DNA from: Candidatus Methylomirabilis tolerans
GTDB taxonomy: Bacteria > Methylomirabilota > Methylomirabilia > Methylomirabilales > Methylomirabilaceae
NCBI GenBank assembly: GCA_019912425.1
Contig: JAIOIU010000034.1
Location: 1 to 57,513, forward strand
Length of the DNA: 57,513 bases
Reading direction: 5' to 3'
Shown here: in pieces, positions 12,265 through 27,234 of the stretch
How the letters are laid out: the number at the start of each line of letters is the position of its first letter
Position numbering within the stretch: position 1 is the first letter of the stretch
Made by a program: the position numbers and the translations under genes
Notes under the pieces: model-generated
The model's database searches: none
The model's input: the letters and a program-made list of their open reading frames with translations, nothing else
Told to the model about the DNA's origin: nothing

Positions 12265-15594
<3,330 letters not shown>

Positions 15595-16089: not shown

Positions 16090-16848
16090 TTACCAGCCCG
16101 TTTTCGGAAACTTCACCAGACCGTAACCTTCCAACTTACCACTTGACGAGTGACGAAACGAGGATTCGATCTGGCTGAAGAAGCGATTATCGCCATTCTT
16201 GAACCGCCGAAAAACCGCGCCAGCCACCATATCCGCGAACTGCACACCGACGCTCAAGTGTGAGGGCGCGATGAACAAACCCTCAATCAGATTTTCGTAG
16301 TGAGAGGCCGTGGTCTTGGCGCCCACCAATAGCTGGTGATGCAGCTCTCGCAGCCTCTCATCGTCTTTAGGCGCGCGATGATCGCACACGACGATGCCAT
16401 GCACTCGTTCTCCAACCGTACGCTCCAGGTCTTGAAGATAGTACTGGAATCGCTCGGTCAATTGCTTGTAACTGTACCAGTACAACTCGTCCGCATTCCG
16501 GATGTATGGGAGTTCGTAGGCTGCGGTTACGTTGGTTACCACACAAATGAGCCGTAGCGATTTATAGCTTCGAATCGCCTCGTATAGTTTCGATCGCAGC
16601 GTTTCCTTTTGTTCAGGTGAAAGGTGGCTCAGGCTGTTCCGCTTCGCCCCTGGCTTTGGCGGCGCGAAGTAGCGCCACTTGATTTCTCCGGAGATGCTAA
16701 AATGAGACTTCAATCGGCGCAGGTCCGCCGCGAGTTTACTCCAGAAATCCTCGGGTACAACCAGTCCTCCCAAAACAAAGTAAGCCGTTTCCTCCTGCTT
16801 TTGCGGCGGTGGCGGCGAACCCGATTCGTCAACGAACAGAATTTGCAT
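16090..16848 (-). CDS. DUF3800 domain protein
   Basis: The protein has 252 residues from the ATG at 16848, with GAAGG just upstream. It shows the DUF3800 pattern: N-terminal FVDESG, a middle VCDHRAP acidic segment, and VQFADMVAGAVFRRF near the C-terminus. The D/E positions are compatible with an RNase H-like active site, but no function is proven for the family. It frequently sits beside mobile or defence genes, as here inside a type I R-M island. The start codon region overlaps the end of the hsdR scar at 16852-16968. Confidence 0.8.
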   Translation of the reverse strand: MQILFVDESGSPPPPQKQEETAYFVLGGLVVPEDFWSKLAADLRRLKSHFSISGEIKWRYFAPPKPGAKRNSLSHLSPEQKETLRSKLYEAIRSYKSLRLICVVTNVTAAYELPYIRNADELYWYSYKQLTERFQYYLQDLERTVGERVHGIVVCDHRAPKDDERLRELHHQLLVGAKTTASHYENLIEGLFIAPSHLSVGVQFADMVAGAVFRRFKNGDNRFFSQIESSFRHSSSGKLEGYGLVKFPKTGW

Positions 16849-16851
16849 CAA

Positions 16852-16968
16852 TTACCTTCGCGACAATTCGGCCAACTCCGTACCCTGCTTAATCGCACAC
16901 CCGATGCTTTCGAGCCACGTCAGCGCAGCCTGTTCGACGACGGATTCGGTGGAGCCTTGAAGAATCAT
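16852..16968 (-). pseudogene. hsdR 5' scar (second), 38 codons
   Basis: It reads MILQGSTESVVEQAALTWLE and continues SIGCAIKQGTEL before a stop. This matches the first about 30 residues of HsdR (compare the intact gene's [24 protein letters not shown]), but the sequence is clearly a different allele. Its ATG overlaps the TGA of the ATPase/nuclease gene (ATGA). This suggests that gene once ran directly into a full hsdR. Confidence 0.78.
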
Positions 16969-18914
16969 AGGATAAGCGGAGCTTGGGTTGGCGTTTGCAT
17001 TACTTTGGTCATTAGATCGACGCCTGAAATATCGTCGTATCGCGTCGGGATCTTCTCCTTGAGCTTGAACAAGCGCTGGTGTGCTGAGCGGGTAAGCTGC
17101 CCATAGGTGGTTGCAACAACACGTCCGCGAAGAACACCGTCTTCCTTAATCTCGTTTTCCTTGCTTGTTTTGGGCTGAATCTCGTAACCGACGACATATG
17201 CACGAAATATCGGGGTTCCGTCCATGACGCCACTACCCAAGAAATCCTGAACGTAACCGTTGGCTTGGTTCATTTCGTCGCGCCCGATCGCTGACTTTCC
17301 CTTCTTCAGCTCGATGATGAGCACATCCTGAATCTTCGTAAGGTTCTGATCGTAGCTGTCGAAGACCTCTGTGCCGACCACCGAATAGGTGACATCAGCC
17401 ATGACCACCAAGTCGGGGCGCTGGCGTGCGTTGTTGAATGCGGATGCTCCTGGCTTTTGGCCAAAAACTTTTTCCGCGGCAGTTCGCAGAGTGACATTCG
17501 AAGCGTATTCATGACTGTCAAACTCTGGACCAAACAGCCAGCGGGCTTGGGTAACTAGTGGGTGCAGCGTGTGAAGCTCATCGGTATTGGGATCTTCGCA
17601 GAGTTTCTCGATTGCCACGATGACTGCTAGCCTGTGGTCGATTTCATCAAGCACTGATAGCGCGTCTCTCACCGTCCACTGGCTAAGTAACCGATCCAAC
17701 CCATCAAGATCGGATTCATCAAGCTGCGTGAGTTTTTCCAGTAAGGCGGCGCCGCTCCTGGACTTCTCCAGGTTAATGACTGTCTGAACAGCTACTGCCA
17801 ATGTCTCAGGATTGATGGTCGGATGCTGCTTTACCAAGTCTCGCGTGAAACTGGCGACCTCAATCCGACCAAGCGTGGAAAGCTCTTTGTACTGCTCGCG
17901 ATTGCGGACAAGCGCATCTTCCGAGCTTTCTTCAACGAAGTTGGCGGAAAGTTTTTCAAACATTCCAAGTGCGTAACGGCACACGGCCTCGTTGAGCGCC
18001 TTGACGGCATCGGAGGGCTTGAATCGTGCCCAGTCGTCCTCTACTTCCGGAATCCACTCTGCTCCCGCTCGGACAACGATGGCGTAGCGCTTTGCAAAGC
18101 GGGCTCGCCCGTCGAGGACGGCTGTGTTACCGACAATCCACCCAGGAGTCCCGACGAGGCGGTTATTTACCCAGAACGCAATTCCCTGATAGAGCGTCGA
18201 TCTCGCCGTCTTTGTCGAGTCCACCACAAAGGCTTCGACCCCAAGTGTTTCTGTGACCTGCAACACGGTCCGCTCAATCAGGCCGGAGTGCTCAGGCAAG
18301 GATATTGATTGTCCGTTTACACGCACCACGAACTGCGGATCGTGAAGAAACCGAGCAGAAATGATCTCGCGTATGCGGTCAGCGTCCGGAATATGTCGCT
18401 CCACTACTACCGATAGCCGCGTGCCATGGCCGCTTCGCTCGAAGGCGCTCTCGCTCTCGATCTTGAAAGGTGTGTGCTGGCTATGGGTGCTCACGCCAAA
18501 TTGCGCCCCCTTTCCTTCTCGCCAAGTTTCTACTTCATAGCGATCCGCAAAACAAAGCATGCCATGACGTCCCACTCCATTACGGCCGTAGGCTCGGCGC
18601 TTCCAATCCTTACGTTCCGATGGAAACTCCACACTCTGGCCCTGATGCCTGGCTCGATCGTAGGCCAGCATCATCCAGCGGTTCTTGAATTGCTCTGCGC
18701 TCATCCCGTGCCCATCATCAGCGACGACAAGCGCGTTCTGCTTTTCAGGAGGAATCGTGATGTCAACAGAAGAGGCCCCGGCATCCCAAGCGTTTGCCAC
18801 CAGTTCCGTCAGTGCCACATCGGAATCGTGGGCGATACGCCCAAGCGTTCTCAGCAGATAATCCTCCTCAAAAAGAGAGCCGAAGCTGTCTGCATTTTTC
18901 TGTGCGTGCGTCAT
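16965..18914 (-). CDS. GHKL (Hsp90-like) ATPase with C-terminal PD-(D/E)XK-like nuclease region
   Basis: The protein has 649 residues from the ATG at 18914, behind a strong AGGAGG; an upstream in-frame extension is not needed. N-terminal GHKL motifs are ELVANAWDAG (N-box), DDGHGMS (G1) and GRNGVGRHGML (G2/lid). The middle is helical. Near residues 540-585 it has RPDLVV, then about 30 residues, then LIIELKKGK followed by QANGY. This is the D...ExK layout of restriction-type nucleases. The fusion suggests an ATP-gated DNA nuclease. It is not one of the standard type I subunits, and its stop overlaps an hsdR start remnant. A defence role is inference from context. Confidence 0.75.
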   Translation of the reverse strand: MTHAQKNADSFGSLFEEDYLLRTLGRIAHDSDVALTELVANAWDAGASSVDITIPPEKQNALVVADDGHGMSAEQFKNRWMMLAYDRARHQGQSVEFPSERKDWKRRAYGRNGVGRHGMLCFADRYEVETWREGKGAQFGVSTHSQHTPFKIESESAFERSGHGTRLSVVVERHIPDADRIREIISARFLHDPQFVVRVNGQSISLPEHSGLIERTVLQVTETLGVEAFVVDSTKTARSTLYQGIAFWVNNRLVGTPGWIVGNTAVLDGRARFAKRYAIVVRAGAEWIPEVEDDWARFKPSDAVKALNEAVCRYALGMFEKLSANFVEESSEDALVRNREQYKELSTLGRIEVASFTRDLVKQHPTINPETLAVAVQTVINLEKSRSGAALLEKLTQLDESDLDGLDRLLSQWTVRDALSVLDEIDHRLAVIVAIEKLCEDPNTDELHTLHPLVTQARWLFGPEFDSHEYASNVTLRTAAEKVFGQKPGASAFNNARQRPDLVVMADVTYSVVGTEVFDSYDQNLTKIQDVLIIELKKGKSAIGRDEMNQANGYVQDFLGSGVMDGTPIFRAYVVGYEIQPKTSKENEIKEDGVLRGRVVATTYGQLTRSAHQRLFKLKEKIPTRYDDISGVDLMTKVMQTPTQAPLIL

Positions 18915-18972: not shown

Positions 18973-19155
18973 TCAATTGGCCACCTCAACGCAATGCCGG
19001 GCGTCTTTGATGCGAAGCTCGCCGGAGATGAGCTTGGGCAGCAGCGTGTCGCGGCAGGCGGCGAGCCTGCAGGATTCAACCTTCACCGACCAGCCTAAGC
19101 TTTCGAGCCAGGCTAGTGCGGCATCTTCAACGAGGGATTTGGTGAAGGACATCAT
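18973..19155 (-). pseudogene. HsdR N-terminus fused in frame to HsdS C-terminus (scar, 60 codons)
   Basis: The first about 24 residues (MMSFTKSLVEDAALAWLESL, then GWSVK) match the HsdR start. The rest (CRDTLLPKLISGELRIKDAR) matches the C-terminus of HsdS, compare LRDALLPKLISGELRVRDAK in the intact hsdS. Everything between is gone. It overlaps the herA stop by 4 nt (ATGA). The simplest reading is a recombination joint between two type I operons that removed hsdR of one and most of hsdS of the other. Confidence 0.82.
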
Positions 19156-21377
19156 TGGGGTCCACCGTCCGCATTCAATCCCTCTGGTGTCGCTTCAGCA
19201 CCACCATCGCTCCCCCCTTCCCACTTCGCGCAGATGCCTTCGACGTCTACGGCCGGCGCGGAATTCTGCACCCAGTACCGATAGAACTGGGGGTCACGGC
19301 TCCTGGGCACTGGCCGCGCTTCGCGAACCTTCACGAGCGCCGGTGCCGGGACGCACTCGCCAAGAACGAGGGCCGTCTGGGGAGCGAGGGCTGGGATCTG
19401 CTCCAGCATCGGCCCGTAGATGCCGGGCACGATCTCCTTGAAGTAGCGCAGATCCTCAGGATTCTGCAGCCGGTGCACGATGAAGCTACTGCATTGCGAC
19501 AGCACCGTCTTCGAAAGCTCGCTCGGCCGCTGGGAGGCAACCACCAGGCTCAGGCCGTATTTCCGCCCCTCGCGCGCGATCCGCTCGAACACGACACGCG
19601 CGATCGACTCCTCCTCGGCGAAGCGTGGCTGCTGGATGTAGTTCTGGGCCTCCTCCAGCACGAGCACGACCGGCAGCGAGCCGCGCGCCCCTTCGCCGCC
19701 GTGCTCACCGAGGCGCTGAAGGAACTCGATGATCAGCCGTCCGATCAGCGCGGTTACATTCTCCAGCACTTCGGCTGCGAGGAGGCTCAGATCGAGGATG
19801 ACGACATCGACGGCGCTCTCCTTGTCGCGCTGGCGGTCGTAGAAGGGCATGCGCAACCTCGGAACGTCGGCGTCGGTCGCCAACATCTTACCGTTCGACG
19901 CGCCGAGGCCCAGCGCATCGCGTAGGAATGCCGAGAGGACATGCGGCGCCTTTGGATAGGTATCGAACATGAACCGAAACCTCGGGTCCTCGAAGTACCT
20001 TCGGATTCGTAGGAACATCGGTCCACAGGCATCTCGCACTCGCCCGGGGTTGCCCGATTCCACCTGTTCACGCATGGCGGTCTCAAGGGCACTTTCCAGG
20101 AACTGACTGCGCTCAAAATGGCGGGGCTGATCCGCGCTGACGTCGGCGGCCCCCAGCGGCCGGTCGGCAGCAATGTGGTTCAGGCGCTCTATGACCGGGT
20201 CAAGTGCGTCTCGAATCTGCTGGAGTCGTGTCCCGCCCAGCCCGCCTTGATTTCCCTGTTGACTGGCCTGTTGCGCGATACCCTGAATCTCCATAAGTGC
20301 GTTCTCCCAGCCCTGAAGGACATCCTGCCCGAAGGCTGTATCCAGCGTCTGGACGTGTTCGGGAAACATCTGTCGATATCGCAGGCCGTCACCGCAACGC
20401 TGTTGAATATTGCCGGGAATGGCCCACTGCTGATTCGGCGCGTCGTTCTCGATCAGTGCGAGGATCTGCCGACATGCAGTTCTCAATACATCAAGCGCTG
20501 AAGCGGGTGTACCGGATGCCGCCGTCCCTGTGCGTGCCAGCCGAAGTGCACGAAGAAGTACGGGCGCCTGCAATCCCTCGCGCGCGCGAAACAGCCGTAC
20601 GAAGTCTTCGGCGTTCATGAACCAGTACGGGATCACGAGACGCTCGGCTGCCTTCCTAGGGTCGGACGGGATGTAGAGGGTCTTCCCCGGTCCGGCGTCC
20701 TCCCAACTCCCGTCCTTCTTCTGCTTCTGGAACGCCGTACGGTACTCGCCGTTGGTATCCAGAATCACGCACGTCGTTCGCTTGACGCTCGGCTGTTCGC
20801 GAATCGACTGCAGCAGGCTCGCGATGGTGCAGGACTTGCCGGAACCGGTGCTGCCGAGGACGGCGGCGTGCTTGCCAAAGAAGGCGTTGGGGTCGATCCG
20901 GATTGGCCGCCCCTGCACGACGGCCGATTCCCCAATCGGGATGCAGTATCCCGGCTCTTCCGGCTTGGGCACCGCACCCGGACCCTGCTCGATCGGGCCG
21001 AAGATCGCGTCCAGATCGGCCCGACCAGCGAGGTGGACCGGGTTGTCGAGTACCGGAAAGAGTGAGACACCCTGCCGGAACGACACACCATCGATCGTGC
21101 CGATGAGCGTCGCCTTCATCAGGCGCCGAGCGGAGGGAAGGGCGACCATTGTCCGGTCGGCCTTCATCTCCGCCTCCTCGACCAACACCACGCGAGTCAC
21201 CATTGCGACTAGCCGTCGTGCGCCCACGGGGATGATCACGTAGGAGTTGATGCGCCCAACTTCCTGAGGGCCTTCGTAGGTACTCCGGCTCATCCCCTTG
21301 AGGTCGCGGTTCAGCTCGATGCTGACCTGCGCCGTGTCGACGGCGACGACGCGCCCGATCTCGGAGTCAGTCGCCAT
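19152..21377 (-). CDS. HerA-like DNA translocase ATPase of a SIR2-HerA pair
   Basis: The protein has 741 residues from the ATG at 21377, which overlaps the end of the SIR2 gene by 11 nt. An N-terminal HAS-barrel-like region (IGRVVAVDTAQVSIEL) precedes the FtsK/HerA motor. Walker A is GSTGSGKS (about 175-182), Walker B is LPVVLVLEEAQNY, and ASQRPSELSKTVLSQCSSF is the sensor region typical of HerA. SIR2 plus HerA is an established anti-phage pair (Nezha-type) in which the two proteins assemble into a large complex that depletes NAD+ and/or cleaves DNA. Here it is transcribed as part of the hsd operon between hsdS and an hsdR remnant. Confidence 0.88.
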   Translation of the reverse strand: MATDSEIGRVVAVDTAQVSIELNRDLKGMSRSTYEGPQEVGRINSYVIIPVGARRLVAMVTRVVLVEEAEMKADRTMVALPSARRLMKATLIGTIDGVSFRQGVSLFPVLDNPVHLAGRADLDAIFGPIEQGPGAVPKPEEPGYCIPIGESAVVQGRPIRIDPNAFFGKHAAVLGSTGSGKSCTIASLLQSIREQPSVKRTTCVILDTNGEYRTAFQKQKKDGSWEDAGPGKTLYIPSDPRKAAERLVIPYWFMNAEDFVRLFRAREGLQAPVLLRALRLARTGTAASGTPASALDVLRTACRQILALIENDAPNQQWAIPGNIQQRCGDGLRYRQMFPEHVQTLDTAFGQDVLQGWENALMEIQGIAQQASQQGNQGGLGGTRLQQIRDALDPVIERLNHIAADRPLGAADVSADQPRHFERSQFLESALETAMREQVESGNPGRVRDACGPMFLRIRRYFEDPRFRFMFDTYPKAPHVLSAFLRDALGLGASNGKMLATDADVPRLRMPFYDRQRDKESAVDVVILDLSLLAAEVLENVTALIGRLIIEFLQRLGEHGGEGARGSLPVVLVLEEAQNYIQQPRFAEEESIARVVFERIAREGRKYGLSLVVASQRPSELSKTVLSQCSSFIVHRLQNPEDLRYFKEIVPGIYGPMLEQIPALAPQTALVLGECVPAPALVKVREARPVPRSRDPQFYRYWVQNSAPAVDVEGICAKWEGGSDGGAEATPEGLNADGGPQ

Positions 21378-22766
21378 CGGCCTCATCTCCTTCGGTCGGG
21401 CTGGTTTTCGCGAGCGCGCGGTGCGTGGCCAGGACCTTCTTGCGGATCTCTTCGTCTCGGAGATCTGGAAGGGCCTGATCCACGAACCCGGCGAGCGTTC
21501 CGAGCGTCGGCCCCTCGGCGATCCAGACACGCCGGTCCCGCTGCTCGCGCAGCTTGGCAACGAACTCGCTCATCGGCGCCGGATCCACGATGACGAGGGT
21601 GAAGCTCGGAACGGCGAGAGCCTGCTGGATGATCGCGTTCACATGCTCGTCACCGAAGCCGTAACCGACCACGAACAGCACCGACTGGGGTCGAGAGAGG
21701 GCACCCGCAAATCTGCGGAACAACTCGGAGTACGGCATACCCAACGTCTCACCATACTTCGCCGGAGTCGGGTAAATCAGGAGCGGCTGCGTCCCAGCCG
21801 GATCGAAAGCCGCCGACTGCACGCCGTAGGGATCGTCGATCGTCGGCTCGTTCGCCGTCCACGTGATGGATCCATGCAGCTTGTAGAGGTGCAGGACCCG
21901 GTCGAACCGGTGGACGCGGCCCTCGGTTGTTTCCGCCGGGAAGTAGAGATCCTGCTCGTAGCTCTCGGGCCGGAAGACGCGGCGTTGGGTGCCGATGAAG
22001 CCTTCTAACAGAACGACGCCCTCGGCGTCCGACGCCTGCTCGACAAGCGTGTCGTAATTGAGCGTGAAGACGTTCACCCGCTTGAGATTGAGCGGGCGCG
22101 TCAGGAGCTTGCGGACGATGGTCTTGTAGGTTGCGAGGCCGGCTCGCCTGTCATCCGTCGGAAGGTCGCAAGCGCGCGCCAAGGCGCGCGTCGCATGCTT
22201 GAGAGCAGCATCGAGGTCATCTGCCTTGGCGTCCAGGAGTGGAGAGCCGTCCATGCGCAGCCGGCCGCCCGTTTCAGGCAAGGCCGAGCGCCAACGCTGC
22301 AGTGTCGCCAGCACTCGCTCAAAGTTGGCCCGGATCGGTTCGACCCCCTCGCCGTTAAGCGCCTCCCGACGAGCGAGGATCGCTTCGTGAGTCACGGGGA
22401 TCCTGTCGCCGCCGCCCGAGTACCGCAGAGCCAGATAAAAGACCGACAGCCACCGCCGAATCCGCAGTCGTGTTGTTCCCGTGATGCCTTCGTTGTGCAA
22501 GTCCCGCTCGACCACCAGAGGAACGGAACCGATCAGTTGTCCGCCGCAATCGACCGAGGCGCCTGCGCCGAGGAGGAAGGACACCGTCTCCGTCTTGAGC
22601 AGAGTCCCGACGCGAACACGGATGTCGTTGAGCGCCTCACGTTGCCGGCGCCCGGCCGCTGATTCTTGCGTGTCAGAACCAGCCGCGACCGACTCGGTCT
22701 CAATCGGCGACAGAAGCTCCTCACCTCCGATAGCGAAGTGATCCTCTGGGGTGAAGTTCGCGTCAT

Positions 22767-22770
<4 letters not shown>
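21367..22770 (-). CDS. SIR2-like NADase/deacylase-fold protein of a SIR2-HerA pair
   Basis: The protein has 467 residues. The Rossmann-type SIR2 core shows FLLGAGASVDCGG (about 64-76, NAD-binding GAG-S), VFTLNYDTLVEQ (the TxNYD motif) and LYKLHGSITW with the catalytic-position histidine. FVVGYGFGDEHVN follows late in the domain. The N-terminal about 45 residues are acidic and probably disordered. Its start overlaps the hsdS stop (ATGA) and its end overlaps herA, so expression is coupled on both sides. The known role of such pairs is abortive NAD+ depletion on phage infection; activity here is inferred. Confidence 0.87.
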
Positions 22771-24522
<1,752 letters not shown>

Positions 24523-24533
<11 letters not shown>

Positions 24534-24756
24534 ACCCAAGCTCCTTCAGGTTGGCGGCGACAGCGGGGTCCAGCTTCACGAACACCACGTATTCCTCCTG
24601 GACATCCAGCGCCAGAATTTTGCCCTCCCGCAATGCTGTAACGTGCTCGGCGCTCAGAACAACTTCTTCCTGTCGCCAACGCTTGCCAAAGGGCTGCTCG
24701 CTCTGTTCTACGTCGCAGACGGGATCGACAATGGCGATGCGCGGATCAGCATTCAT
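24523..24756 (-). CDS. Small protein between the HEPN and hsdS genes (77 aa)
   Basis: The peptide begins MNADPRIAIVDPVCDVEQSE and continues with QPFGKRW, EEVVLSAEHVTALREGKILA and DVQEEYVVFVKL. I do not recognise a named domain. It is compact, without cysteine pairs or membrane segments. Its end overlaps the hsdS start by 11 nt and contains the hsdS ribosome site, so it is translationally coupled to hsdS and probably real. No strong ribosome site precedes it. It could be an accessory or antitoxin-like partner of the island; that is a guess from position. Confidence 0.6.
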
Positions 24757-24798: not shown

Positions 24799-25155
24799 CT
24801 AATCGACTCTATCCCCGCGTTGGCCGAGCAGAGCCTCGACCTCTCGCAGAAGCGTCGGCAGGTCGTTCTGGATCACATCCCATGTGACATTGGTATCGAC
24901 CAGGTCGTAACCATGAATCAGGATATTGCGGAAGTCGACGATCCGCCGACGTCGGCTGATCTGCGATGCGGTCGCCGCATCGAGTTTGGTCAGTCGATCG
25001 ATCGCCTCACCGACAATCTCAAGCTGACGCTCGATCCCCGAACGTAGAAGAGCGTTCTCTGAATAATCACGAATGGTTTGGCCTGCGGCGAACTGAAGGA
25101 TCAACCCGATGGCCTGCCTGACGTCTTCCAGAAGCTTCCTGGACTCAAGCCGCAT
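24799..25155 (-). CDS. HEPN-domain toxin (HepT-like, DUF86)
   Basis: The protein has 118 residues from the ATG at 25155, which overlaps the end of the nucleotidyltransferase gene by 11 nt. It is an all-helical HEPN protein starting [20 protein letters not shown]. The ribonuclease motif Rx4H is seen as RNILIHGY. IERQLEIVGEAIDRL is the usual second helix. In MntA-HepT systems the HEPN RNase is the toxin and is silenced when the partner transfers AMP residues to a tyrosine near the RNase motif; here the tyrosine of HGYD is the candidate. Confidence 0.87.
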   Translation of the reverse strand: MRLESRKLLEDVRQAIGLILQFAAGQTIRDYSENALLRSGIERQLEIVGEAIDRLTKLDAATASQISRRRRIVDFRNILIHGYDLVDTNVTWDVIQNDLPTLLREVEALLGQRGDRVD

Positions 25156-25453
25156 AGAGCACCGTCCGGTTGCGGTTGACCGATTCGAGGAAATAGCGAT
25201 TCCTAATGGCACCGGTCATGATCAGGTCAACGTCGCGCTCAAACAGCTCCCGCAATGCCTCCAGCAGGCCGAAGTACGCATCGGCGTACTCACCGGACCG
25301 GAGCGGGAGAAATTCGACGAGGAAGTCCAGATCGCTGGTACGGGGATCGAAACGGTTCGTGAGCGCGGACCCGATGATCTCAAGCCGCCGAACACGGTAC
25401 TTGGCGCACAGGCGGATCAGGTCATCGCGGTGTTCTTCGATCAGGCGGTTCAT
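25145..25453 (-). CDS. mntA: MNT-type nucleotidyltransferase antitoxin (MntA-like)
   Basis: This 102-residue minimal nucleotidyltransferase has the signature [17 protein letters not shown] (GS-x10-DxD), followed by a third acidic position in VDLIM. Its ATG overlaps the hsdM stop by 4 nt and its end overlaps the HEPN gene by 11 nt. It would inactivate the HEPN RNase by AMPylation. Embedding a MNT-HEPN pair between hsdM and hsdS places it under the R-M promoter. Confidence 0.87.
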
Positions 25454-27234
25454 CTTTTCGATTCTCTTTTGAGATGGTATCCCAGTATAGCCAAGCTCTC
25501 ACAGATAGCCTGGTCCAGCCGTGCTGACTCCGTAAACTGTTCCTCAAGCTTCTTCGTAAACCGCTGCATCTTCTCGTCGAACGGCTCGCCGTCATCCTCC
25601 TGCGCCTCGGCGCCGACATAGCGGCCGGGCGTGAGCACATGGCCGTGCTTGCGGATCTCTTCGAGCGTGGCGCTCTTGCAGAAGCCGGGGATGTCTTCGT
25701 ACCCCTCACCCCCAGCCCGGCCCTCACCCCAACCCTCTCCCGGAGGGCGAGGGGGCATGGAGCGCCAGGCGTGGTAGGTATTGGCGATGCGCGCGATGTC
25801 GTCGTCGGTCAGCTCGCGATGGGTACGATCCACCATGCGGCCCAGCTTGCGGGCGTCGATGAAGAGGACGTGGCCGCGACGGTCGCGGAACTTGCCGTTC
25901 TTGCGGTCGCGCGCGAGGAACCAGAGGCACGCGGGGATCTGGGTCGAGTAGAAGAGTTGGCCCGGCAGCGCGACCATGCAGTCCACGAGGTCCGCTTCAA
26001 TGAGGTTCTTACGGATCTCACCCTCGCCGGACTGGTTGGACGACATCGAGCCGTTGGCGAGCACGAAGCCGGCCACGCCCATCGGCGCCAGGTGGTGGAC
26101 GATATGCTGCACCCAGGCGAAGTTAGCGTTGCCCGGAGGTGGCATGCCGTACTTCCAACGTTTATCCTCACGCAATCGATCGCCGCCCCAGTCGGAGACG
26201 TTAAACGGCGGATTGGCGAGGATAAAGTCGGCCTTGAGGTCGGGGTGGCGGTCGTTGTGGAAGGTGTCGCCGTGACCGATCTGGCCATCGATGCCACGGA
26301 TGGCAAGGTTCATCTCCGCAAGGCGCCAAGTAGTATAGTTGGACTCCTGGCCATAGATAGAGATATCCGCCTTCGCCTTACCCCCATTGCCGTTTCCCTT
26401 GGCGTGCGCGCGGATGAACTCTACCGACTGCACGAACATGCCAGAGGAGCCGCAGCAAGGGTCGTACACTCGCCCGCGGTAGGGCTCGAGCATTTCGACC
26501 AGGAGCTTGACTACACAGCGCGGCGTATAGAACTCGCCGCCCTTCTTGCCCTCGGCGCTTGCAAACTGTGAGAGGAAGTACTCATAGACGCGCCCAAGGA
26601 GATCATGGGCGTGTCTACCCTCACCCCCAGCCCTGCCCTCACCCCCGTCCCCTCTCCCGGATGGCGAGGGGGGAAACGCGCCCTCACCCGGCCTTCGGCC
26701 ACCCTCTCCCACTGGGAGAGGGGTTGGGGGTGAGGGCTGACGGAAGTCGATGTTGCTGACGAGGTCGATGAGCTGGCCGAGGCGCGTTTTGTCGAGCGCT
26801 GGGCGGGCGTAGTCCTTCGGTAGCACACCCTTGAGCGCCGGGTTGTCGCGCTCGATACCGGTCATGGCGTCATCCACGAGCTGGCCGATGGTGGGCTGCT
26901 TCGCCTGCGCCTTTAGATGCGCCCAGCGCGCCTCGGGCGGGACCCAGAAGATGCTCAGGGCGCGGTATTCGTCGGGGTCTTCGGGATCGGCGCCGCTCGC
27001 CTTCTCGACCACGAGTTTCGCGTGTTGTTCCTCGAAGGCGTCGGAGATGTACTTGAGGAAGATCAGGCCGAGAACGACGTGTTTGTACTCGGCAGCGTCC
27101 ATGCTGCCACGCAGGGCATCCGCCATCCGCCACAGCTCGGCTTCGTAGCCGATATTTGCGCCTATCTGCGTGCGGCCACGCACAGGCAGGCCTGTGGCGT
27201 TCGTGGAGGTCAAGTTCTTCTTCCCCTTCGGCAC
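25450..27234 (-). CDS. hsdM: Type I DNA adenine methyltransferase subunit HsdM, with in-frame repeat insertions
   Basis: The protein has 594 residues starting at a GTG (27234) placed 5 nt after AGGAGGTGAG. An N-terminal helical domain ([20 protein letters not shown]) precedes the N6-adenine methyltransferase core. The SAM site is [12 protein letters not shown] and the catalytic motif IV is [34 protein letters not shown] and the [20 protein letters not shown] segment are also typical. Two foreign Gly/Pro-rich peptides interrupt it at about residues 165-206 and 493-511, before [18 protein letters not shown] and after YHAWRSM. Both are encoded by GC-rich palindromic repeats and keep the frame. 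It is the first gene of the island operon. Confidence 0.94.
25700..25756. repeat. In-frame GC-rich palindromic repeat in hsdM (3' part)
   Basis: CCCTCACCCC(C/A)A units are followed by CCCTCTCCCGGAGGGCGAGGG. This is the same family as in hsdR and hsdS, here encoding a [15 protein letters not shown]-type peptide. Confidence 0.8.
26616..26738. repeat. In-frame GC-rich palindromic repeat cluster in hsdM (middle)
   Basis: Two hairpins (CCCTCTCCCGGATGGCGAGGGG and CCCTCTCCCACTGGGAGAGGGG) are flanked by GGTGAGGG/CCCTCACC tracts in opposite orientations. About 41 codons are inserted without breaking the frame. Confidence 0.8.

What the first reader, a model, noticed from the sequence alone, without database searches (positions are those of the whole stretch)
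16965..18914. GHKL ATPase joined to a PD-(D/E)XK-like nuclease region: candidate defence effector
The N-terminus has complete GHKL motifs (ELVANAWDAG, DDGHGMS, GRNGVGRHG). The C-terminus has RPDL...LIIELKKGK...QANGY, a D-ExK-Q arrangement. This pairs an ATP-driven clamp (MORC/MutL/Hsp90-like) with a nuclease in one chain. It ends overlapping an hsdR start remnant, so it was once part of a type I operon. I do not recognise it as a named system.
Basis: partly seen in the sequence, partly recalled or inferred. Interest (0 to 1): 0.7.

Follow-up and report, generated by a model that had tools for sequence, protein, structure and literature searches.

The report
GHKL-gated nuclease in restriction operon
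This gene encodes an ATP-driven clamp joined to a DNA-cutting domain, a defence-enzyme design described in 2008 and shown in 2025 to stop phages in a protein of the same design, here inserted as a movable single-gene cassette inside a type I restriction-modification operon.

Summary
The gene is on the minus strand (18914-16965, 649 codons, intact, dN/dS 0.09). Its N-terminus is a complete GHKL ATPase plus S5-like module. Its C-terminus is predicted to fold like a PD-(D/E)XK nuclease (FokI, Shedu, EndoMS, BspD6I), with D/E466, D501, E535, K537 and Q550 kept in 47 of 47 relatives. The kind is not unnamed: this is the paraMORC3 architecture (Iyer et al. 2008). Profile comparison with paraMORC3 proteins, which match the BbrUII/HgiDII restriction-enzyme family, gives E 2.6e-33 over the whole chain. 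The same design was validated as anti-phage in Vibrio cholerae VcSduA. This protein belongs to a divergent subfamily (284 loci found, many phyla) that misses the BbrUII cut-off and the SduA_C model and has no cytosine methylase partner. Most relatives are standalone; 13 of 80 lie near type I restriction genes, by several acquisitions. In the window and two relatives (89% identity) it lies in a type I operon, overlapping an hsdR-start remnant by 4 bp, while its accessory neighbours differ, so it moves as a one-gene cassette. Most likely it restricts phage DNA by ATP-gated cleavage, independently of HsdR. What it recognises is unknown.

The parts
16965..18914 (-). GHKL-ATPase / PD-(D/E)XK nuclease gene, 649 aa, paraMORC3-like
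   Evidence: dN/dS 0.09 against L053
18303..18872 (-). GHKL ATPase domain, residues 15-204 (E37, N41, D44, D66-G70, G110-R116)
   Evidence: Pfam HATPase_c_3; VIA-align TRAP1/Hsp90 Z 16.9, MORC2 Z 15.8, MutL Z 15.1; motifs invariant 47/47
18015..18302 (-). S5 (transducer)-like domain, residues 205-300
   Evidence: model strands 212-283; MORC and MutL alignments extend to about residue 324
17595..18014 (-). helical middle region, residues 301-440
   Evidence: AlphaFold2 model helices 302-438
17037..17594 (-). PD-(D/E)XK nuclease domain, residues 441-626
   Evidence: separate model pLDDT 82.5, pTM 0.81; FokI Z 8.7, Shedu 8ti9 Z 8.3, EndoMS Z 8.2, BspD6I Z 8.0, SduA 8ps5 Z 7.5
17265..17519 (-). 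predicted nuclease active site: D/E466, D501, E535-x-K537, Q550
   Evidence: column counts; register with paraMORC3 proteins in hhalign
16852..16968 (-). hsdR-start remnant; its ATG overlaps the GHKL stop codon
18973..19155 (-). hybrid remnant: hsdR start fused to hsdS 3' end, between HerA and GHKL
   Evidence: 81% and 86% DNA identity to the resident hsdR start and hsdS end
25450..27234 (-). hsdM
   Evidence: N6_Mtase 1.2e-106
25145..25453 (-). MntA-like nucleotidyltransferase
24799..25212 (-). HepT-like ribonuclease (HEPN)
22767..24539 (-). hsdS with an internal DUF559 insertion
21367..22770 (-). SIR2-like defence protein
19152..21560 (-). HerA-like translocase; stop overlaps an hsdR-start ATG
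16090..16851 (-). DUF3800 protein
12265..15594 (-). hsdR, full length

Best explanation
A single-gene anti-phage restriction effector of the paraMORC3 / VcSduA-like kind. ATP binding is expected to dimerise the GHKL+S5 modules into a clamp around DNA (inferred from MutL, MORC and VcSduA). Closing the clamp is expected to position or license the C-terminal PD-(D/E)XK domains to cut invading DNA. It travels as an independent cassette, often standalone and sometimes lodged in type I operons, and probably works without HsdR. Shown here: domain composition, intact catalytic residues, predicted fold, purifying selection, homology to paraMORC3 restriction enzymes, cassette mobility. Inferred: ATPase and nuclease activity, dimerisation, anti-phage function. 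Unknown: the trigger or self/non-self cue.
For: GHKL+S5 fold matching TRAP1, MORC2/3 and MutL. Nuclease domain with FokI, Shedu, EndoMS and BspD6I as best structural matches. Catalytic residues invariant 47/47. Full-length profile match to paraMORC3 proteins, E 2.6e-33, prob 99.9, catalytic residues in register. Those proteins match the BbrUII/HgiDII restriction-enzyme family (P0002 751 bits against cut-off 550). The same architecture is anti-phage in VcSduA, lost on ATPase (E27A) or nuclease (K557A) mutation (PMC12137116). dN/dS 0.09 overall, 0.06 in the nuclease. Type I genes within 3.5 kb in 13 of 80 loci, at least 7 changes of that label forced by supported branches. GHKL is 84-85% identical in DNA across three type I operons whose hsdR/hsdM are only 66-70% identical, with different accessory neighbours.
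Against: No biochemical or phage data for this subfamily in what was read. Foldseek alone gives only weak matches for the nuclease domain (best E 0.064), and a Z near 8 is moderate. No direct sequence match to the SduA_C model. Whole-chain pTM is 0.54, so the domain arrangement is not established. VcSduA itself was not available for direct comparison.
Confidence: 0.75

Rival explanations
1. It is an alternative or accessory effector of the type I system: it borrows HsdM/HsdS methylation or HsdR stalling as its cue and cuts DNA that the type I complex marks.
For: It sits in the hsd operon with start-stop overlaps to hsdR-derived ATGs. In L063, L072, L101 and related loci it is the last gene of an hsdR-hsdM-(YhcG)-hsdS-GHKL operon, overlapping hsdS. 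The association is recurrent.
Against: 67 of 80 relatives show no type I gene within 3.5 kb (some contigs are short). Many different cassettes occupy the same site. Embedded TgvAB works without HsdR activity (PMC11411939).
Confidence: 0.1
2. A MutL-like DNA repair enzyme (ATP-gated nicking endonuclease) rather than a defence protein.
For: The N-terminus resembles MutL; Iyer et al. 2008 raised a distinct, possibly repair, role for standalone paraMORC3 proteins.
Against: MutL models stay far below cut-off (30 against 180 bits). Patchy, cross-phylum distribution and defence or mobile neighbours. No full-length match in the 98 other related genomes searched.
Confidence: 0.06
3. A type II site-specific restriction enzyme whose cognate methylase is unlinked or provided by another system.
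For: Its paraMORC3 relatives are BbrUII/HgiDII-family restriction enzymes next to cytosine methylase genes.
Against: Below the family cut-off (102 against 550 bits). None of 80 relatives has that methylase adjacent; one lies 7 kb away. An unmethylated fixed site would harm the many standalone carriers.
Confidence: 0.09

Closest known systems
paraMORC3 family (Iyer, Abhiman and Aravind 2008, PMC2292703)
   Same: N-terminal GHKL + S5 ATPase module and C-terminal RE-fold nuclease with E-D-ExK; full-length profile match E 2.6e-33; standalone members in proteobacteria and Bacteroidetes were already noted there.
   Different: About 19% identical in the profile alignment with the paraMORC3 set used here; a separate subfamily with its own conserved signature (WLFGPEFDS, GRNGVGRHG); no cytosine methylase partner.
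BbrUII/HgiDII restriction enzymes (NF050001)
   Same: Homologous over the whole chain by profile; same domain order.
   Different: Scores 102 bits against a cut-off of 550; no adjacent C5-cytosine methyltransferase.
VcSduA, GHKL-type Shedu (type I-D), PMC12137116
   Same: Same domain order and predicted active sites; both ATPase and nuclease residues are essential there.
   Different: Direct sequence comparison not made; no SduA_C Pfam match in this subfamily; VcSduA sits in a V. cholerae genomic island next to GrwAB, this gene sits in a type I operon.
Shedu SduA (B. cereus 8ti9, E. coli 8ps5)
   Same: Nuclease fold: Z 8.3 over 140 residues and Z 7.5 at 3.3 A; similar placement after hsdS on several plasmids.
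   Different: The SduA proteins aligned here (A4) have no GHKL ATPase; direct profile comparison of nuclease domains is not significant.
TgvAB embedded in a type I operon (PMC11411939)
   Same: A different defence system lodged inside hsd genes and acting on its own.
   Different: Unrelated GmrSD-like proteins.

Membership tests
paraMORC3 | N-terminal GHKL domain with intact ATP-binding motifs | tested here: met
   HATPase_c_3 1.1e-18; motifs invariant 47/47
paraMORC3 | S5-fold domain after the GHKL domain | tested here: met
   AlphaFold2 model aligned to MORC2/3 and MutL through about residue 324; predicted, not solved
paraMORC3 | C-terminal RE-fold nuclease with E-D-ExK | tested here: met
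   fold match to PD-(D/E)XK enzymes; D/E466, D501, E535xK537 in 47/47
paraMORC3 | homology to paraMORC3 proteins over the whole chain | tested here: met
   hhalign E 2.6e-33, prob 99.9, 560 columns
BbrUII/HgiDII restriction enzymes (NF050001) | score above curated cut-off (550 bits) | tested here: not met
   102.2 bits, residues 35-210 only
BbrUII/HgiDII restriction enzymes (NF050001) | adjacent C5-cytosine methyltransferase | tested here: not met
   none in the window operon; one of 80 relatives has one, 7 kb away
Shedu (SduA_C / DUF4263) | match to the SduA_C Pfam model | tested here: not met
   no match at E<1 in P0001 and not listed among the families matched by the 47 members
Shedu (SduA_C / DUF4263) | profile homology of the nuclease domain to SduA | tested here: inconclusive
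   direct E 0.14; indirect through paraMORC3 (4.8e-10, then 1.1e-5 with prob 82)
Shedu (SduA_C / DUF4263) | Shedu nuclease fold | tested here: inconclusive
   8ti9 Z 8.3, 8ps5 Z 7.5, tied with FokI and EndoMS
VcSduA (Shedu type I-D) | GHKL ATPase followed by PD-(D/E)XK nuclease in one chain | tested here: met
VcSduA (Shedu type I-D) | direct sequence similarity to VcSduA | not tested
   its sequence was not retrieved from the collections searched
VcSduA (Shedu type I-D) | anti-phage activity dependent on ATPase and nuclease residues | not testable with these tools
   needs a plaque assay with mutants
MutL | score above MutL cut-offs | tested here: not met
   TIGR00585 30.4 bits against 180

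The most novel reading that the evidence does not exclude
The subfamily is a methylase-free GHKL-gated nuclease that, when lodged in an hsd operon, uses the host type I methylation state or a stalled HsdR complex as its trigger, making it a second, ATP-clamp effector of type I restriction.
Probability: 0.1. Interest if true: 0.65.

Novelty: new member of a known kind. Interest (0 to 1): 0.33.

Why it matters
It ties a protein class predicted in 2008 to a broad subfamily (284 loci in one species-level genome scan) that current family models do not name. It also gives a clear sequence record of single defence genes being slotted one after another between hsdS and hsdR. Because the GHKL clamp is shared with MORC and MutL, these one-protein systems are good models for how ATP-driven clamps control DNA cutting.

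Tried and rejected
Plus-strand reading of the coordinates: no frame. Direct Pfam match for the C-terminus: none; HSDR_N_2 appears weakly in 8 of 47 members. Direct profile match to Shedu SduA_C: not significant. Foldseek and VIA-align on the whole model fill with Hsp90 and MORC and do not test the nuclease; Foldseek on the domain alone is weak. A viral-contig scan for the neighbouring Shedu protein gave nothing. Idea that GHKL replaces HsdR in the L061-type loci: rejected, the 810-aa upstream gene is an EcoEI-type HsdR. Idea that SIR2-HerA is an obligate partner: rejected, relatives have other neighbours.

Full report
What is there. The gene lies on the minus strand, 18914 to 16965: 649 codons from ATG to TGA, with AGGAGG just before the start. 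The N-terminus matches HATPase_c_3 (E 1.1e-18). The quoted GHKL motifs sit at residues 37-46, 66-72 and 110-118. The C-terminus has no Pfam match. Against the closest intact full-length relative (L053, 88% identical), dN/dS is 0.09 overall and 0.06 in the nuclease part, so the gene is under purifying selection.

Structure. An AlphaFold2 model from 47 homologues has mean pLDDT 80 and pTM 0.54. Its first 324 residues match Hsp90/TRAP1 (best Z 16.9), MORC2 (15.8) and MutL (15.1), that is, a GHKL domain plus an S5-like domain. A helical region (302-438) follows. The C-terminal domain modelled alone (pLDDT 82.5, pTM 0.81) gives FokI (Z 8.7), the B. cereus Shedu nuclease domain (8.3), EndoMS (8.2), BspD6I small subunit (8.0) and E. 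coli SduA (7.5) as its best structural matches; the first twelve rows are all nucleases of this class. Foldseek alone was weak, so the fold assignment rests on the second look plus the motifs. D501, E535, K537, Q550 and Y554 are identical in 47 of 47 sequences, and position 466 is always D or E.

Relatives. One scan of species-level genomes found 284 encoding loci, of which 80 were kept, across Pseudomonadota, Bacteroidota, Acidobacteriota, Bacillota and others. More distant full-length relatives (31-35%) lie on rhizobial, Azospirillum and Tritonibacter plasmids. The gene tree mixes phyla; for example an acidobacterial sequence nests beside a betaproteobacterial one, which fits horizontal transfer. 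Among 98 other genomes related to the window's own, only weak partial matches were found.

What kind it is. The architecture is paraMORC3, defined by Iyer et al. 2008 (PMC2292703) as GHKL + S5 + a C-terminal RE-fold domain with E-D-ExK. A set of such proteins, including one annotated ParaMORC3 in phage PhiR44_1, aligns with our subfamily over 560 columns with E 2.6e-33 and catalytic residues in register. All nine members of that set match the BbrUII/HgiDII restriction-enzyme family, P0002 at 751 bits against a cut-off of 550, and most lie beside a cytosine methylase. Our protein reaches only 102 bits, and of 80 relatives only one has such a methylase, 7 kb away. It is therefore a homologous but separate subfamily. 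VcSduA of V. cholerae has the same domain order, was reported as a GHKL-type Shedu, and loses anti-phage activity on ATPase or nuclease mutation (PMC12137116). Our subfamily does not match the SduA_C model directly; the link to Shedu is indirect, through paraMORC3 (E 4.8e-10, then 1.1e-5) and by fold. I say it works like VcSduA and do not file it as Shedu.

Setting. In transcription order the window holds hsdM, MntA, HepT, hsdS, SIR2, HerA, [hsdR-start/hsdS-end hybrid remnant], GHKL, [hsdR-start remnant], DUF3800, hsdR. The stops of HerA and GHKL each overlap the ATG of an hsdR-start remnant. Sideroxydans L028 (89%) has hsdM, a small gene, hsdS, an 844-aa ATPase, remnant, GHKL, remnant (89.5% identical over 191 bp to its own hsdR start), a 366-aa RhuM-like gene, hsdR. 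L053 (89%) has GHKL, remnant, a 469-aa accessory gene, hsdR. GHKL is 84-85% identical in DNA across these operons, whereas hsdR and hsdM are 66-70%. The simplest reading is that GHKL moves as a single-gene cassette and that cassettes have been added one after another at the hsdS-hsdR junction. Type I genes lie within 3.5 kb in 13 of 80 relatives, in several arrangements, including hsdR-hsdM-(YhcG)-hsdS-GHKL; well-supported branches force at least 7 changes of this label. Other neighbours include PglXI (L083), SIR2-HerA (L049), dynamin/PLD proteins (L037, L045) and SNF2 helicases. Defence genes working independently inside a type I operon have precedent in TgvAB (PMC11411939).

Mechanism. Most likely an ATP-closed clamp that licenses the C-terminal nuclease on foreign DNA. 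Composition, conservation, predicted fold, selection and mobility are shown here; activity, dimerisation and anti-phage function are inferred; the recognition cue is unknown. Because 67 of 80 relatives show no type I genes nearby, independence from HsdR is the better bet, although some of those contigs are short.

Verdict. It is a new member of a known kind, with an interesting record of cassette insertion. Interest 0.33.

Noticed in passing
window 19155-18973 and 16968-16852; L028 7407-7480 and 9444-9650; L053 2220-2270: Short hsdR-start remnants follow embedded accessory genes in three type I operons, usually overlapping the stop codon of the gene before; a footprint of stepwise cassette insertion at the hsdS-hsdR junction.
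   Followed up: partly
window 22767-24539, 12265-15594, 25450-27234: hsdS carries an in-frame DUF559 domain between its two recognition halves, and hsdR and hsdM carry in-frame palindromic repeats (TCnCC..GGnGAG); 10 of 11 pattern hits in the window lie between 12.9 and 26.7 kb.
   Followed up: partly
L061, L063, L072, L075, L101, L084: A group in which GHKL is the last gene of an EcoEI-type operon, directly after hsdS; in L061, L101 and L084 a YhcG-like nuclease gene lies between hsdM and hsdS.
   Followed up: partly
L161, L162, L165 (plasmids): Shedu SduA genes themselves lie directly after hsdS on Methylocystis, Vibrio fluvialis and Neotabrizicola plasmids.
   Followed up: no
L024 9983-13388: On a Rhizobium plasmid a GHKL-nuclease relative and a Shedu SduA gene are adjacent, 10 bp apart.
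   Followed up: no
L083 6917-11902: GHKL-nuclease directly downstream of a PglXI-type methyltransferase gene.
   Followed up: no
L037 7173-11968, L045 7138-11980: Dynamin-like protein with a C-terminal phospholipase-D-like (MIT_C) domain immediately upstream of GHKL, in an acidobacterium and a betaproteobacterium.
   Followed up: no
L028 7498-9447: The Sideroxydans copy is frame-disrupted near residue 60, by assembly error or decay.
   Followed up: no
L027 4968-8016 (PV340563.1): Phage PhiR44_1 carries a BbrUII-family paraMORC3 gene facing a cytosine methylase gene.
   Followed up: no
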